DNA of 64,000 bases, from contig JAHFST010000005.1 in assembly GCA_023265625.1 (NCBI GenBank), forward strand, positions 62,001-126,000. Reading direction: 5' to 3'. Position numbers and translations under genes: made by a program. Numbering within the stretch: the stretch's first letter is position 1; every line of letters begins with the position of its first letter. This stretch comes from Deltaproteobacteria bacterium. GTDB lineage: Bacteria; UBA10199; JACPAL01; JAHFST01. Shown here one piece after another: positions 40,575 through 46,076 of the stretch. The notes beneath the pieces are model-generated. The model was not told the origin of the DNA, did not search any database, and saw nothing but the letters and a program-made list of their open reading frames with translations.

Positions 40575-42484
40575 CCTCCAGTTTACTGCAAAAAAACCTC
40601 CACGCCTTAGAAAAACACCATCCCCTCCTGGCCGAACGCATTCGAGGCTTACCCGACATCCCGGGACTCTCCTTAGTCACACGGGAAGGGAATGCCGTAA
40701 ACCTCGCCCTCCAATCCGCCGAGGGCAAGGCTCAGCCCTATTACCCCGATGAATCACCACGTTACTCCAAAACGCTGATCGACCAACTGGCGTTAAAAAA
40801 TCCACGGGTCTTGATCTTTTTAGGGTTAGGACTGGGCCACCATTTATTGGAATACGCACGACGTCCTCATCCACTCAATCAAGGGATCATTATTATCGAG
40901 GCCTTTCCCGAAATTTTTAAAAAAACTCTCGAAGCGGTGGACTTAACACCCCTGATGGAATCAGCACGCATCACCTGGCAAATCGGCGCGGATCTCGAAG
41001 TGTTGAGACAGGGACTAGGACAGTTCTTCTCCCAAGGCTCTCTGCGCTATGCCAATGCTGTTGAATACATAGCCTTGCCTCCAGCCCTGCAAATCAATCA
41101 AAATTTCTTCAAACAAGTCGAACAAATTATTCCGCAAGCGATTGCTCATCAATTTAATCGTGTCTTTGGCGACCCCTATGATGGGTACCTGGCCACCCTC
41201 AATATCATGGAAAATCTGCCACGAGTCTTGGGGATGCCAGGACTCGAACAAGCCAAGGGGCTCTTTGCCAACAAACCGGGGATTGTCATTGCCTCCGGGC
41301 CTTCCCTGCCTCACTGTTTTCCGATGCTCCGAGATTTGCAAGACTGCAGCGTCATGGCCGTCTCCCCATCGGCCCTCAAGGAGGTCATCCAGCAGAAGAT
41401 CCACCCTCACATTTGGCTCGATATTGAACGGTTGGAGGAAGATGCCAATTTTCTCGCATCCCTTCCATCAAAGCCCCCTCATCTCTTTGTCGGCCCACCG
41501 CGCATCCACCCCAAGACATTTGCCAGCCATGCAGGGGATAACTGCTATCTCCTCAGTGCCAATCTTCAATCTAACTGGCTCCCTTTACCTGGCAATCGGT
41601 ACGATTTGGGGCATTCCTCGGCCCACACCGCCTTTCTCGCACTCCATCTCCTGGGCTGTGACCCTATTTTTCTGGTCGGGCAGGATCTCAGCTACGCCGC
41701 ATCCGGCAGTCATGCCCCCGGCGTCTGGGAGGAATCAAAAAACTTAATGATGAATATGAAGGACGATCCGAATAGAACCCTCACCATTGAAGGGAACAAC
41801 GGCCAACCTGTTGCAACCAATCTCTTCTGGTTGACCTATCTCAAGACCTTTTCCGAACAATTGATCCCAAACCACCAAGGAACGGTTTACAATGTCATTC
41901 CGGAAGACTGTGGCGCCAAGATCCCGGGGACGATTCGGATTAATCCCGAACAATTTCTACAAAAGATTGCCCCTAAGCCATTCCCGGCCCTCACCCTATT
42001 GAAAGAAAAACTCACGCCTCCCAGCCCTGAGGAAACTCAACAAAGAACCTCCATCATCAAAGAACGCGCCCAGCAGGCCATCCGAATGCTCGATCGCCTC
42101 ATCCAAGACTCCGAACAATTCTCACTCCAGTGCAAAGATCTGCAATTTCACCCGGAACTCATGCGCAAGAATTGGCAACACGTCGAACCGCTCTATCGAA
42201 AATTTTTAGACGAGGTAGAACGATATTCCACTCGTTACACCCAAGATCCCAGTTACGAACAGAATCGGTTTCATTATCAGGAATTTTTTCACCCGATCAT
42301 TCAAGGACTGATGCTCCGTTATCAAATTGATTTCTTTTCCAGTGCCGAAGACTTATCAGGCAACTTCCAAGAAATCTCACGTAAGACCGAGGTCTTGTTC
42401 AACATGGCCAAGGACGAGGCCCACTGGGCTAGGCTTTGTCTCCCAATCCTGCACCGCTGTCTTCAGGTTACTTCAAAAAATTGA
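40571..42484 (+). CDS. Maf-type motility-accessory glycosyltransferase (DUF115 family)
   Basis: Maf proteins transfer pseudaminic or legionaminic acid onto flagellin. The 637-residue protein has the DUF115 / MptE-like core: the GIVIASGPSL motif at about residues 237-246, AVSPSALKEVIQQKIHPHIW, then GHSSAHTAFLALHLLGCDPI and FLVGQDLSYA. A helical C-terminal domain follows. The only plausible start is the TTG at 40571, forming a TTGA overlap with the activator stop, because an in-frame stop lies six codons upstream. Its 3' end overlaps the opposite-strand gene by 17 bases. A complete Pse pathway in the window supports the role. Confidence 0.9.
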   Translation: MTSSLLQKNLHALEKHHPLLAERIRGLPDIPGLSLVTREGNAVNLALQSAEGKAQPYYPDESPRYSKTLIDQLALKNPRVLIFLGLGLGHHLLEYARRPHPLNQGIIIIEAFPEIFKKTLEAVDLTPLMESARITWQIGADLEVLRQGLGQFFSQGSLRYANAVEYIALPPALQINQNFFKQVEQIIPQAIAHQFNRVFGDPYDGYLATLNIMENLPRVLGMPGLEQAKGLFANKPGIVIASGPSLPHCFPMLRDLQDCSVMAVSPSALKEVIQQKIHPHIWLDIERLEEDANFLASLPSKPPHLFVGPPRIHPKTFASHAGDNCYLLSANLQSNWLPLPGNRYDLGHSSAHTAFLALHLLGCDPIFLVGQDLSYAASGSHAPGVWEESKNLMMNMKDDPNRTLTIEGNNGQPVATNLFWLTYLKTFSEQLIPNHQGTVYNVIPEDCGAKIPGTIRINPEQFLQKIAPKPFPALTLLKEKLTPPSPEETQQRTSIIKERAQQAIRMLDRLIQDSEQFSLQCKDLQFHPELMRKNWQHVEPLYRKFLDEVERYSTRYTQDPSYEQNRFHYQEFFHPIIQGLMLRYQIDFFSSAEDLSGNFQEISRKTEVLFNMAKDEAHWARLCLPILHRCLQVTSKN

Positions 42485-42770
42485 GGCGGGACTCCAAGGC
42501 CCTTTCGTAACTCACCAGACGACGGATGAGAGCGTTGTAGCGGCTGTGGGCATCTTTTTGATTTTCTCCCTGAATCTTTTGATACAGGGCATGCTCGGGA
42601 TGAACCGGCAAACCTTTTTTGTCAGGAATCGAGACACCCAAGCGACGCAGTCGTGGCGCTCCGATCAACACCAAGAGTGCTACCAATGAGGTATCGTGGC
42701 CTTCAGCAAGGTCTCGCAACCCTTCTTCAATCAGATCCTCACCAGGCAGTCGATCTGGTCGTTTAGACAT
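42468..42770 (-). CDS. Small protein paired with a nucleotidyltransferase
   Basis: The 100-residue product starts at the ATG at 42770 (MSKRPDRLPGEDLIEEGLRD). It has no signal or membrane span and is rich in Leu, Arg and Glu, with a likely C-terminal helix (YNALIRRLVSYERALESRLN). The start overlaps the stop of the upstream nucleotidyltransferase gene by eight bases, so the two are translationally coupled. I do not recognise the family. The pairing resembles two-gene toxin-antitoxin-type modules, but nothing in the sequence proves that. A longer in-frame reading to 42971 lies inside the neighbour gene and is rejected. Confidence 0.65.
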   Translation of the reverse strand: MSKRPDRLPGEDLIEEGLRDLAEGHDTSLVALLVLIGAPRLRRLGVSIPDKKGLPVHPEHALYQKIQGENQKDAHSRYNALIRRLVSYERALESRLNFLK

Positions 42771-43329
42771 GCTGAACGGCCTCCCTGACTTTTGCCGCAA
42801 AGGATGCCTCATCAATGGCTGGATAGCGAATGAGTTGAGGTCTGATGGACTCAAAGAAAGAGAGCAACATCTCCCGTTTGACGAGGCCACGGGAGAGCAT
42901 TTCATGCACATCTTTCTGGTCCTGAGCATGACCACGCTCAATCTTGGCGAGCGCCTGGGCATAAAAATCATAATGAAAGAAATGCAGGGAACCTTGCTGA
43001 CCTATAAAAACAGAACGATCTTCCCACCCTGGCAGAGGCGGGATGAAATCGCCTGGTGAGGCAAGCTCAATGTTGACGCCCAGCTCGTCTTTGAGTTCGG
43101 CAATCACCTGAAAGACTTCATCCGTATCAGGCACCGGTTTGATATCGATGTCGATGGTGGTATCCCGCCAATCAAGCAAAACAGCGGTCGCGCCGCCGGT
43201 CAAATAAACACGCCCTTTTTTTTTGATGCGACGCCCAAATCCTTCCATAAACTTCGTAATTTTTTCGCGGCTTGAGGAATGACGCATAAACAACTCATTA
43301 TCGGCCACCACCAAGCTATAATCAATCAT
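42763..43329 (-). CDS. Nucleotidyltransferase-fold protein (DUF6036 / AbiEii-like)
   Basis: The 188-residue protein has a minimal nucleotidyltransferase signature: GGAT (Gly45-Gly46) followed by RDTTIDIDIK, with Asp60 and Asp62 as candidate metal ligands. The rest is mixed alpha/beta, with a helical C-terminus (YPAIDEASFAAKVREAVQHV). Such domains occur in toxin-antitoxin and abortive-infection modules and in DUF6036 proteins. It forms an operon with the 100-residue gene downstream. The 342-base region upstream holds hairpins and a repeat. The fold is well supported; the biological role is inferred. Confidence 0.78.
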   Translation of the reverse strand: MIDYSLVVADNELFMRHSSSREKITKFMEGFGRRIKKKGRVYLTGGATAVLLDWRDTTIDIDIKPVPDTDEVFQVIAELKDELGVNIELASPGDFIPPLPGWEDRSVFIGQQGSLHFFHYDFYAQALAKIERGHAQDQKDVHEMLSRGLVKREMLLSFFESIRPQLIRYPAIDEASFAAKVREAVQHV

Positions 43330-43503: not shown

Positions 43504-43629
43504 GATACATGGGATCTGGCCCTACAAAACGAGGACTCAAAACCCCGGCCCGCTGCTCAGCCCAACCACGGCATTTCTTATTAGCCTAATAATATCATAT
43601 AGTTAAATATATTCCCGAAACAGGAATGA

Positions 43630-43645
43630 TGGCAAGGAAATTGCT
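43630..43645 (+). promoter_or_regulatory. Sigma-54 type -24/-12 promoter of an unknown gene pair
   Basis: TGGCAAGGAAATTGCT has the GG-N10-GC spacing and the TTGC core. Predicted start is near 43657. It is followed by an AAGGAGGG Shine-Dalgarno and the ATG at 43672. It is the fifth such element found in the window. Confidence 0.8.
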
Positions 43646-43671
43646 TTATATTCCAGTATCAAGGAGGGAAC

Positions 43672-44007
43672 ATGGCCCCAGTCGGATTAGATGCCCCAAG
43701 CAAAGTACTCTTGAATAAGTTGGCAGCCGTCGCACCTGAAGAGGCAAAACGGCTCACCGGAGAATTAGCGGCAGCCACCAATCCCGGCGATCAAGCCAAG
43801 CTCCTTGATCAGGCGAGACAATTTCTCTCACGAGTGACCACCACCTCTGGCTCAGCTATCAGCCGGTTTGGTTCCTTTGTAGCGGGGGTACCCACGGAAC
43901 TGCGTTCCCTGTTTGACACGATCAAAACACACGACGTTGCCACCCTGAACAGAGGTAGCATGGTAACTACGTTTGAGAAATTTTTAAGTGCCAGTGAGAT
44001 GGCTTAA
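43672..44007 (+). CDS. Unrecognised small protein, sigma-54-controlled (first of a pair)
   Basis: The 111-residue product is mostly helical in character and Ala/Leu/Thr-rich, with no signal peptide, no membrane span and no cysteine. It contains PEEAKRLTGELAAATNPGDQ and SAISRFGSFVAGVPTELRSL. I do not recognise a family. Start choice is firm because of the AAGGAGGG Shine-Dalgarno. A sigma-54 promoter 27 bases upstream links it to the flagellar regulon. The partner gene starts 15 bases downstream. Candidate roles are a secreted flagellar protein, a chaperone or a regulator, all speculative. Confidence 0.7.
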   Translation: MAPVGLDAPSKVLLNKLAAVAPEEAKRLTGELAAATNPGDQAKLLDQARQFLSRVTTTSGSAISRFGSFVAGVPTELRSLFDTIKTHDVATLNRGSMVTTFEKFLSASEMA

Positions 44008-44022
44008 TTATAAGGAGATCTT

Positions 44023-44340
44023 ATGACACCTGACCAATTGATCAAACAATTTCCTAAATTGGCTTTTCTAAAATCAGCCGAGTTTCAGAGTCTCTCACAA
44101 GAGAAACAGGAATTTTTGCTCACTGTCATTGAAGATGCCACCTTTTGGGTCGATTTGGAAAAACAACCCAATGCCTCCGATGGTTTTAAATTCTTGGCCG
44201 CGACCTACGGCCTGTCCAACGCCCAGGTCGAGGCCAACACCCAGGGCTTGAATGGCAAGGAACGGGAAAAGTTTCTGCGCCCGCATCAAGATCTTTATAC
44301 GATGTTTAATCCTTATTCAGGGAACGGCCAGGAAGCCTAG
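44023..44340 (+). CDS. Unrecognised small acidic protein (second of the pair)
   Basis: The 105-residue protein is soluble and mildly acidic, with aromatic residues (FWVDLE, FKFLAATYGL) and a polar tail. No signal, membrane span or known motif is seen. A Shine-Dalgarno (AAGGAG) precedes the ATG. It follows the 111-residue gene by 15 bases and should share its sigma-54 promoter. Its end overlaps the convergent outer-membrane gene by four bases. I do not recognise a family. Confidence 0.68.
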   Translation: MTPDQLIKQFPKLAFLKSAEFQSLSQEKQEFLLTVIEDATFWVDLEKQPNASDGFKFLAATYGLSNAQVEANTQGLNGKEREKFLRPHQDLYTMFNPYSGNGQEA

Positions 44341-46076
44341 AAATCAATAATCACATTCGAACGCATACCCCATACCCAATTCGCCTTATCAAACGGGATG
44401 GCGTTGACCTGCGCCAGGTTGGCGGGGCTAAACGGGACCACCGAGACGTCGTACGCAGAACCGGGTAACAAATAGGCCCCCGTTAAATCAAAGTGGACGT
44501 GATCATAGACCTTGATCTCAAAAGTTCCATCGACCTCCACCCCGTACCACTTTTTGTTATTCACCACACGAGGGAGCGAGGCCAGCGTGGTAATTTCCGC
44601 AAAATCAATGTCAACATTGTTGGAGGGGGCCCAGGCCGTAATGAACTTAATCCCCGCCTTGGCAAAGTTGAAATGAGGGATCGCTGAAGAGAGATCAAGA
44701 GGCATCTTGAAACCAAGCCCGGTATAAATGGCATTATTAATAAAATTCCCCGTCACCGGGACAGCACCGACCAGTTGGCGGCCACCAATGCCATTCCCAT
44801 TTGTTTGAGTGATGCGCGGCGAGGATCCAAGCGGGGTGTGAAAGAGCAGCAATCCCAACTGATAATCGGGACGAAACCCATATTGCGTGATACGCGACGA
44901 GAGCGGCTGGGCATCCCCCGAGGCATAACCGCCTAGCAACTCAAACTCGCCCCCAAATGGCGCCGTGTAGTTGGCCTCCAGCGCGGCCATCTGGGCCCGA
45001 AAGGTGCTCTGTTGCGCAAGCTCAATCGCCCCACGCCCATTAGCCGGAACCCCATTGAATGGAATCGCATCAATCGCCAGACCCGTCGAAATCTTTCCCG
45101 CCATGATGACGTATTCGCCCTGAATCTTTAACGGACCATGCTGATACTTGAGATAGAGATCGCCAAAATACAGCAAGGTATCCCCGTCTTTGCCGGCCGG
45201 GACAGGATCAGAGAGCTGAAAATTTCCGTTGGAATCATTGATAGGATTCCCATTGCCATCCACCAACACTTGACGAGCCGTGGTGGTTGTTTCTCCCTCT
45301 TTTCCATTGCGATAACGCAATCCAAAGAGACTCCCAATACTGAAGTCTTTAATTTCGTAAAGGGCAAAACCCGCGAATTGCCGCATATCCCGAGTGGGCC
45401 CGGTGATCGTTTGCCCAATCCCACTGATCCTCGGATCCTGCTGCGCCGTAAAAACAAAATTGGCCGAAGCCCCCAGGCTCACACTCCCATGTCGTTCTGA
45501 TTCAATCGCAGCCAGGTAGGTAATGGCATCAAAGGTGTCACCAAAATCATCATTGTAACCAGACCCATCATTCAGAAAAATCCCCAGGCCCCACTGCGTC
45601 CCCTGACGTCCCAGGCGAAATTTCCCCCCCGCCGTCAAAATATCCACATAGGCCCGCCGGATGTTGAGGACCTTGTTCTCCCCAGCACTCCCGCCAGTGA
45701 CCCCCAAAGCCCCACCGGCCCCTGGGAGCTGAACCGTACCAACAAGCGGGGAAAGAAAATCGATCTGCTTGACTTGCTCGGTACCGGCAATAACATTGTC
45801 CAAGATATCGAGCTGAGTGTGGATCGAGATGTTATCGTTAATCTTTAAGGCCGGATCAAGCCGCAACCGCTCTTGCGTAAAAAGCATGGAACCAAAACGG
45901 TCGTTGTCGCCCAAGCCTCCTTGGTTCACGCCAGCATTGGGTTGTTGTGTATCCAGGTCGTGATAGTAAACCACCCGGCTGCGCAGATACCCATTGGCCG
46001 AAAAATCCAAGGCGCGCAATGCAACGGGACTCGCCACTAAGCCAATGATCAGAAGGACAATAAGAGAAGACCGCAC
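44337..46076 (-). CDS. Outer-membrane beta-barrel protein (porin-like)
   Basis: The 579-residue protein has a signal peptide (hydrophobic about 4-22, ending VALRALDF). Alternating amphipathic segments typical of beta strands follow, for example GSVSLGASANFVFTAQQ and VHFDLTGAYLLPG. It ends with SNVIIDF, a terminal Phe typical of barrels recognised by BamA. An N-terminal block with ANGYLRSRVVYYHD and RRAYVDILTAGGKFRLGRQG resembles alginate-export/porin families. It stands alone between two unrelated units. Substrate cannot be told from the sequence. Confidence 0.8.
   Translation of the reverse strand: MRSSLIVLLIIGLVASPVALRALDFSANGYLRSRVVYYHDLDTQQPNAGVNQGGLGDNDRFGSMLFTQERLRLDPALKINDNISIHTQLDILDNVIAGTEQVKQIDFLSPLVGTVQLPGAGGALGVTGGSAGENKVLNIRRAYVDILTAGGKFRLGRQGTQWGLGIFLNDGSGYNDDFGDTFDAITYLAAIESERHGSVSLGASANFVFTAQQDPRISGIGQTITGPTRDMRQFAGFALYEIKDFSIGSLFGLRYRNGKEGETTTTARQVLVDGNGNPINDSNGNFQLSDPVPAGKDGDTLLYFGDLYLKYQHGPLKIQGEYVIMAGKISTGLAIDAIPFNGVPANGRGAIELAQQSTFRAQMAALEANYTAPFGGEFELLGGYASGDAQPLSSRITQYGFRPDYQLGLLLFHTPLGSSPRITQTNGNGIGGRQLVGAVPVTGNFINNAIYTGLGFKMPLDLSSAIPHFNFAKAGIKFITAWAPSNNVDIDFAEITTLASLPRVVNNKKWYGVEVDGTFEIKVYDHVHFDLTGAYLLPGSAYDVSVVPFSPANLAQVNAIPFDKANWVWGMRSNVIIDF

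What the first reader, a model, noticed from the sequence alone, without database searches (positions are those of the whole stretch)
43630..44340. Unknown two-gene operon under a sigma-54 promoter next to the flagellar cluster
Two small genes (111 and 105 residues), each with a strong Shine-Dalgarno and no recognised domain, follow a well-formed sigma-54 promoter. They lie just beyond the Maf gene and between an NTase module and an outer-membrane barrel. Lack of signal peptides and short length would suit secreted flagellar components, chaperones or regulators. This is the best candidate in the window for an undescribed motility-linked unit.
Basis: partly seen in the sequence, partly recalled or inferred. 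Interest (0 to 1): 0.62.

Follow-up and report, generated by a model that had tools for sequence, protein, structure and literature searches.

The report
Sigma-54 operon with hypervariable first gene
A small, tightly regulated two-gene unit with no known relatives is kept by a little-studied lineage of uncultured bacteria, mostly in species that have no flagella; its second gene is well conserved while its first changes almost beyond recognition, which suggests a fast-changing (perhaps exported) protein and its constant partner rather than a motility part.

Summary
A sigma-54 site (43630-43645), gene 1 (43672-44007, 111 aa) and gene 2 (44023-44340, 105 aa) are real, and the unit is conserved. 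Gene 2 has relatives in 8 of 46 genomes of the class: all six of the own order plus two others. Gene 1 precedes it in all eight. A canonical sigma-54 site lies 24-30 nt before gene 1 in seven genomes, with a weaker one in the eighth. An IHF-like element precedes the site in all seven with enough upstream DNA.

The motility reading fails. Seven of the eight genomes have no flagellin, and elsewhere the operon sits beside porin-groEL or rlmE/tRNA-Phe/carD. Its place next to the flagellar cluster is peculiar to this genome.

What stands out is rate asymmetry. Gene 1 is near shuffled similarity (21%) where gene 2 is 72% identical, and 33% where gene 2 is 79%. Neither protein matches Pfam, NCBIfam, PHROGs or PADLOC; gene 2 has no PDB match and is predicted all-helical.

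Best guess: a fast-evolving small protein (gene 1) with a conserved helical partner or export chaperone (gene 2), induced through sigma-54, possibly serving the class's non-flagellar type III apparatus. Function is inferred, not shown.

The parts
43593..43605 (+). IHF-like element TATCATATAGTTA, starting 37 nt upstream of the -24 box
   Evidence: One mismatch to WATCARNNNNTTR (consensus as given in PMC3897727). The core TCANNNRGTTA is in all 7 homologous promoters with enough upstream DNA; best-match test. In shuffled copies of this one promoter a match as good arises 10% of the time, so the evidence is the recurrence.
43630..43645 (+). sigma-54 (-24/-12) promoter TGGCAAGGAAATTGCT
   Evidence: conserved as TGGCAN6TTGCW in 7 of 8 homologous loci, degenerate (TGGTGN6TTGCA) in G013
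43661..43667 (+). Shine-Dalgarno of gene 1 (AAGGAGG)
43672..44007 (+). gene 1: 111-aa hypervariable leaderless protein; helical N-terminal half, low-confidence rest
   Evidence: no family
44012..44017 (+). Shine-Dalgarno of gene 2 (AAGGAG)
44023..44340 (+). gene 2: 105-aa conserved protein, predicted all-helical, with invariant FW and NPYSG motifs
   Evidence: no family or fold match
44337..46076 (-). convergent porin-like gene, a neighbour and not part of the operon; its end overlaps gene 2 by 4 nt
   Evidence: PF13609, below cut-off; TIGR04551, below cut-off; synteny with groEL in G000, G001, G002, G004

Best explanation
A two-gene operon switched on by sigma-54 RNA polymerase with IHF-assisted DNA bending and an unidentified enhancer-binding activator. 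Gene 1 is a small leaderless, fast-diverging protein, most likely exported or otherwise exposed to diversifying selection. Gene 2 is its constant cytosolic all-helical partner (chaperone or adaptor), which holds gene 1 and presents it to a conserved machine through its invariant FW and NPYSG surfaces. The most plausible machine is the non-flagellar type III export apparatus found almost throughout the class. Shown: promoter conservation, gene order, lineage restriction, rate asymmetry, absence of flagellin in most carriers, presence of the type III gate. Inferred: binding, export, and which machine. Probability about 0.4 for the partner/chaperone reading and about 0.25 for the type III link specifically.
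For: Gene 1 directly precedes gene 2 in 8 of 8 genomes, with short gaps. Gene 2 is 72% identical between G000 and G001 and 79% between G003 and G005, while gene 1 is 21% and 33% there, and shuffled controls average 22-25%. Gene 1 lacks signal peptides and membrane helices and has an Ala-rich, hydrophobic-poor N-terminus, as a leaderless substrate could have. Gene 2 is small and predicted to be six helices, mean pLDDT 83.9, pTM 0.47. All eight genomes have an FHIPEP gate protein, and seven of eight a YscJ/FliF-family ring protein; in the seven flagellin-less genomes no large flagellar-type FliF was found. Other sigma-54-type sites in this genome precede many surface or exported proteins (lipoproteins, porin).
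Against: 44 of 46 genomes of the class have the gate protein, so its co-occurrence says little, and the operon is never beside the apparatus genes seen. Gene 2 pI varies from 4.9 to 9.3, whereas many type III chaperones are acidic. No fold match to any chaperone, though the model's overall topology is uncertain. If gene 2 mainly bound a hypervariable gene 1, its own surface might be expected to vary more. The joint model of both proteins is low confidence (pTM 0.32). Ser/Thr enrichment, often seen in type III signals, is absent in gene 1.
Confidence: 0.4

Rival explanations
1. Gene 2 is the working protein, a cytosolic regulator or adaptor of a sigma-54-controlled stress or surface programme, and gene 1 is a loosely constrained short protein or translated leader that couples expression of gene 2.
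For: Only gene 2 is conserved in sequence, with 19 invariant positions across 8 genomes. Gene 1 is at shuffled similarity between families. The two genes are close, at most about 32 nt apart.
Against: Gene 1 keeps an open frame of 109-147 codons, always in the same place, with helical propensity, and within families its similarity exceeds shuffles (z 3.7 and 4.8). A mere leader need not stay so long.
Confidence: 0.3
2. A toxin-antitoxin or effector-immunity pair, with gene 1 the fast-evolving toxin and gene 2 the protector.
For: Two small genes co-transcribed, the first diversifying quickly.
Against: No PADLOC, Pfam, NCBIfam or PHROGs match. None found on plasmids, phages or viral contigs. Inherited throughout one order with two stable locations. 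Control by sigma-54 rather than autoregulation, and a conserved protector against a hypervariable toxin, would be odd.
Confidence: 0.08
3. A flagellar component, chaperone or regulator.
For: Lies about 1.2 kb beyond the Maf gene at the end of the flagellar cluster in this genome and shares sigma-54-type promoters with it.
Against: Seven of eight carriers lack flagellin; three of four flagellated genomes of the class lack gene 2. In every other genome with readable flanks the neighbours are unrelated to motility.
Confidence: 0.04
4. Gene 1 is not one family: different unrelated short genes have replaced each other in front of gene 2 (cassette exchange).
For: Between families gene 1 similarity is at shuffle level and the motif search is only marginal.
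Against: Within families the pairs are related (G003/G005, G002/G004). Similar length, low lysine and alanine-rich N-terminus throughout.
Confidence: 0.15

Closest known systems
Type III secretion substrate-chaperone gene pairs (injectisome and flagellar: FlgN, FliT, FliS, class I-III chaperones)
   Same: Small cytosolic helical protein encoded directly next to a small leaderless protein; the substrate evolves faster; a type III export gate is present in the genome.
   Different: No sequence or fold match to any chaperone family, pI not consistently acidic, operon not in the secretion locus, binding and export untested.
Needleless / Myxo-type non-flagellar type III systems (PMC3459982, PMC12075869)
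   Same: Flagellin-less genomes of the class carry FHIPEP and a YscJ-family ring protein, as myxobacterial NF-T3SS do.
   Different: No relative of gene 1 or gene 2 was found outside this class; whether the class's apparatus is needleless was not tested.
IHF-assisted sigma-54 promoters (e.g. Desulfovibrio orp operons, PMC3897727)
   Same: -24/-12 element with an IHF-type site just upstream.
   Different: The enhancer and its activator were not identified; motif search further upstream found nothing clear.

Membership tests
sigma-54-dependent promoter | GG and GC dinucleotides at -24/-12 with TGGCA-N6-TTGC | tested here: met
   conserved in 7 of 8 loci
sigma-54-dependent promoter | IHF-like bend site upstream | tested here: met
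   TCANNNRGTTA in 7 of 7 promoters; IHF/HU-family genes in all 8 genomes
sigma-54-dependent promoter | rpoN encoded in the genome | tested here: inconclusive
   present in G000 and five other carriers; not found in G003 and G005 although their sigma-54-type sites are enriched
sigma-54-dependent promoter | enhancer site and cognate activator | tested here: inconclusive
   no upstream motif clearly above shuffles
flagellar component or chaperone | co-occurrence with flagella | tested here: not met
   7 of 8 carriers lack flagellin; 3 of 4 flagellated genomes lack gene 2
type III secretion chaperone | small protein beside its substrate gene | tested here: inconclusive
   size and adjacency met; gene 1 as a substrate untested
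type III secretion chaperone | known chaperone fold or profile | tested here: not met
   no Pfam/NCBIfam hit; no Foldseek hit at E<=0.001, with model pTM only 0.47
type III secretion chaperone | acidic pI | tested here: inconclusive
   pI 4.9 to 9.3 across homologues
type III secretion chaperone | binds the substrate and promotes its secretion | not testable with these tools
   needs experiment
toxin-antitoxin or defence pair | known toxin/antitoxin/defence domain or mobile distribution | tested here: not met

The most novel reading that the evidence does not exclude
Gene 2 founds a new family of helical export chaperones or adaptors for the class's non-flagellar type III apparatus, and gene 1 is its hypervariable exported cargo, diversified by interactions with other cells and induced through sigma-54 and IHF.
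Probability: 0.2. Interest if true: 0.65.

Novelty: new member of a known kind. Interest (0 to 1): 0.4.

Why it matters
It is a clean, testable case of an orphan operon whose regulation and second gene are conserved while the first gene diverges nearly to shuffled similarity between genomes whose second gene is 60-80% identical. If gene 1 proves to be exported, it would give a handle on what the widespread but unstudied non-flagellar type III apparatus of this lineage secretes. It also shows that closeness to a flagellar cluster in one genome can mislead.

Tried and rejected
Motility link: rejected on distribution and context. Toxin-antitoxin or phage origin: no family, plasmid, phage or viral match. 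PDB sequence search with the gene 2 profile: nothing. Fold search: nothing at E<=0.001. Read-through model of both proteins joined: low confidence, no usable interface. Common motif in gene 1: 12- and 18-residue motifs within the range of shuffles, 25-residue motif above 25 shuffles but at inconsistent positions. Enhancer motif upstream: information content barely above 12 shuffles, at mixed positions and strands. The shared upstream element was first taken for an activator site; it fits the IHF consensus and also precedes an ammonium-transporter-like gene, so it is not specific to this operon. FHIPEP co-occurrence as support: present in 44 of 46 genomes, so not discriminating. A single-sequence scan of genome contigs found nothing; the profile scan found three loci.

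Full report
Observation. TGGCAAGGAAATTGCT at 43630-43645 fits the sigma-54 consensus TGGCACG-N4-TTGCW except for one position, and 26 nt separate it from the ATG of gene 1 at 43672. Gene 1 (111 aa) and gene 2 (105 aa) have good Shine-Dalgarno sequences and no hydrophobic stretch. The core pattern TGGCAN6TTGC occurs four times in the window against 0.85 expected. Across this genome TGGCAN6TTGCW occurs 50 times against 3 for the reversed control pattern, and it is enriched in all eight genomes examined. Nothing in Pfam, NCBIfam, PHROGs or PADLOC matches either protein; the best score, gene 1 to a chlamydial inclusion protein model, is E 0.059 and far under its cut-off.

Distribution. Gene 2 searched in 60 relatives gave seven homologues besides itself, at 45-73% identity. 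A profile over the 46 held genomes of the class gave the same eight: all six of the own order and two from other families of the class. A profile scan of one genome per species (84,980 species) returned only three loci, matching three of these eight in contig length and position: Deltaproteobacteria bacterium RIFCSPLOWO2_02_FULL_50_16, E14_metabat.bin.352 and OFTM19. That scan relies on two short conserved stretches, so distant relatives could be missed. None was found in plasmids, phages or viral contigs. From memory, such genomes are placed by GTDB in phylum UBA10199; this was not confirmed here.

Conserved architecture. In all eight loci a gene of 109-147 codons directly precedes gene 2. 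Seven have TGGCAN6TTGCW 24-30 nt before its start codon; in G013 the best site is TGGTGCGTAGGTTGCA and the contig ends 78 nt upstream of the gene. In all seven loci with enough upstream DNA, TCANNNRGTTA starts 26-48 nt before the -24 box. This fits the IHF consensus WATCARNNNNTTR and the arrangement described for sigma-54 promoters of Desulfovibrio, where the sites lie between activator and promoter (PMC3897727). Single promoters match the IHF consensus with very variable significance (P 0.00 to 0.48 against shuffles), so the case rests on recurrence. IHF/HU-family genes are present in all eight genomes. Further upstream no shared enhancer was found.

Not a flagellar unit. Flagellin is found in only four of the 46 genomes, and only one of them (this one) has gene 2; the other seven carriers have none. 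In G001, G002 and G004 the operon lies next to the same porin-groEL block as here, and in G003, G005 and G006 between an rlmE-like gene and tRNA-Phe/carD; G013's short contig shows tRNA-Phe beside it. Only here is the flagellar cluster on the other side, separated by a DUF6036 nucleotidyltransferase gene.

Rate asymmetry. Gene 2 has 19 invariant positions in eight sequences, among them FW (41-42) and NPYSG (96-100). Gene 1 is close to shuffled similarity in most pairs: 21% for G000/G001 where gene 2 is 72%, 27% for G002/G004 where gene 2 is 64%, 33% for G003/G005 where gene 2 is 79%; shuffled means are 21-27%. Local alignment scores show relationship within families (z 3.7 and 4.8) and weakly between some others. 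Coding-frame scores favour the proposed frame in five of seven genomes tested. So gene 1 is probably one fast-evolving family, but replacement by unrelated genes cannot be excluded.

Structure. Gene 2, modelled with three homologues, is all-helical with mean pLDDT 83.9 but pTM 0.47, so its helices are credible and their packing is not. No PDB chain matches at E<=0.001, and its profile matches no PDB sequence. Gene 1 in the read-through model has fairly confident helices in about residues 8-50 and little else; the joint model (pTM 0.32) says nothing reliable about contact.

Setting. 44 of 46 genomes have an FHIPEP export-gate protein and 40 have a YscJ/FliF-family protein, although only four have flagellin. 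In the flagellin-less carriers the ring proteins found are in open frames of 327-405 codons, against 494-517 for the flagellar ones of the flagellated genomes; G004 has no match. The class thus appears to carry a non-flagellar type III apparatus, which recalls the Myxo group of NF-T3SS (PMC3459982) and the needleless system used in Myxococcus predation (PMC12075869); whether it is needleless was not tested. Other sigma-54-type sites in this genome precede lipoproteins, a porin and an ammonium-transporter-like protein, so the regulon is broad and points to no single pathway. Those products are read from sequence by eye and were not scanned against families.

Interpretation. The combination of a constant helical protein, a hypervariable leaderless neighbour, tight regulated co-expression and lineage-wide retention is best explained by a partner or chaperone with a fast-changing client. 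Binding, export and the type III link are inferences. The chief rival is that gene 2 alone matters. The finding is a real, undescribed, lineage-restricted operon of moderate interest, not a motility unit.

Noticed in passing
G003 and G005 (family f4), whole genomes: No RpoN by either PF04552 or PF04963, although 29 and 22 sigma-54-type sites remain against 2 and 1 for the control pattern, including the one before this operon. Either rpoN falls in an assembly gap in both or it is highly diverged.
   Followed up: partly
whole class (46 genomes), e.g. L101, L102, L115, L116: FHIPEP in 44 and YscJ/FliF-family protein in 40 genomes, though only 4 have flagellin: a nearly class-wide non-flagellar type III apparatus, its gate gene next to an ArgJ-like gene in several.
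   Followed up: partly
L071:8466-13705 (G000:C16): A third, divergent FHIPEP paralogue (653 aa, middle part unmatched) starts a run of genes without a clear family plus a VWA7_N protein, behind a sigma-54-type site.
   Followed up: partly
L059, L060, L061, L071, L073, L078, L082, L095, L096, L098: Sigma-54-type sites preceded by palindromes like CCGTCCGAAATTCGGACGGT; two of them stand before proteins that look like REP-associated transposases, so these may be REP elements.
   Followed up: no
L078, L082, L096: Short open frames (66-69 aa) that look alike and hydrophobic follow these palindrome-linked sites.
   Followed up: no
L062:727-1981 and L103:7621-8310: A sigma-54-driven 153-aa protein followed by a 238-aa protein that resembles a 229-aa protein in G006: another possible variable-plus-conserved pair.
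   Followed up: no
L065:1635-1967: A lone 110-aa leaderless protein behind a sigma-54 site with the same IHF-like element, similar in style to gene 1, upstream of a prfA-like gene.
   Followed up: no
window 44337-46076: Porin-like protein beside groEL, conserved at about 60-68% in four genomes of the order; partial match to TIGR04551.
   Followed up: partly
window 42468-43329: DUF6036 nucleotidyltransferase and a second short frame lie between Maf and the operon; not seen in the relatives' loci.
   Followed up: no
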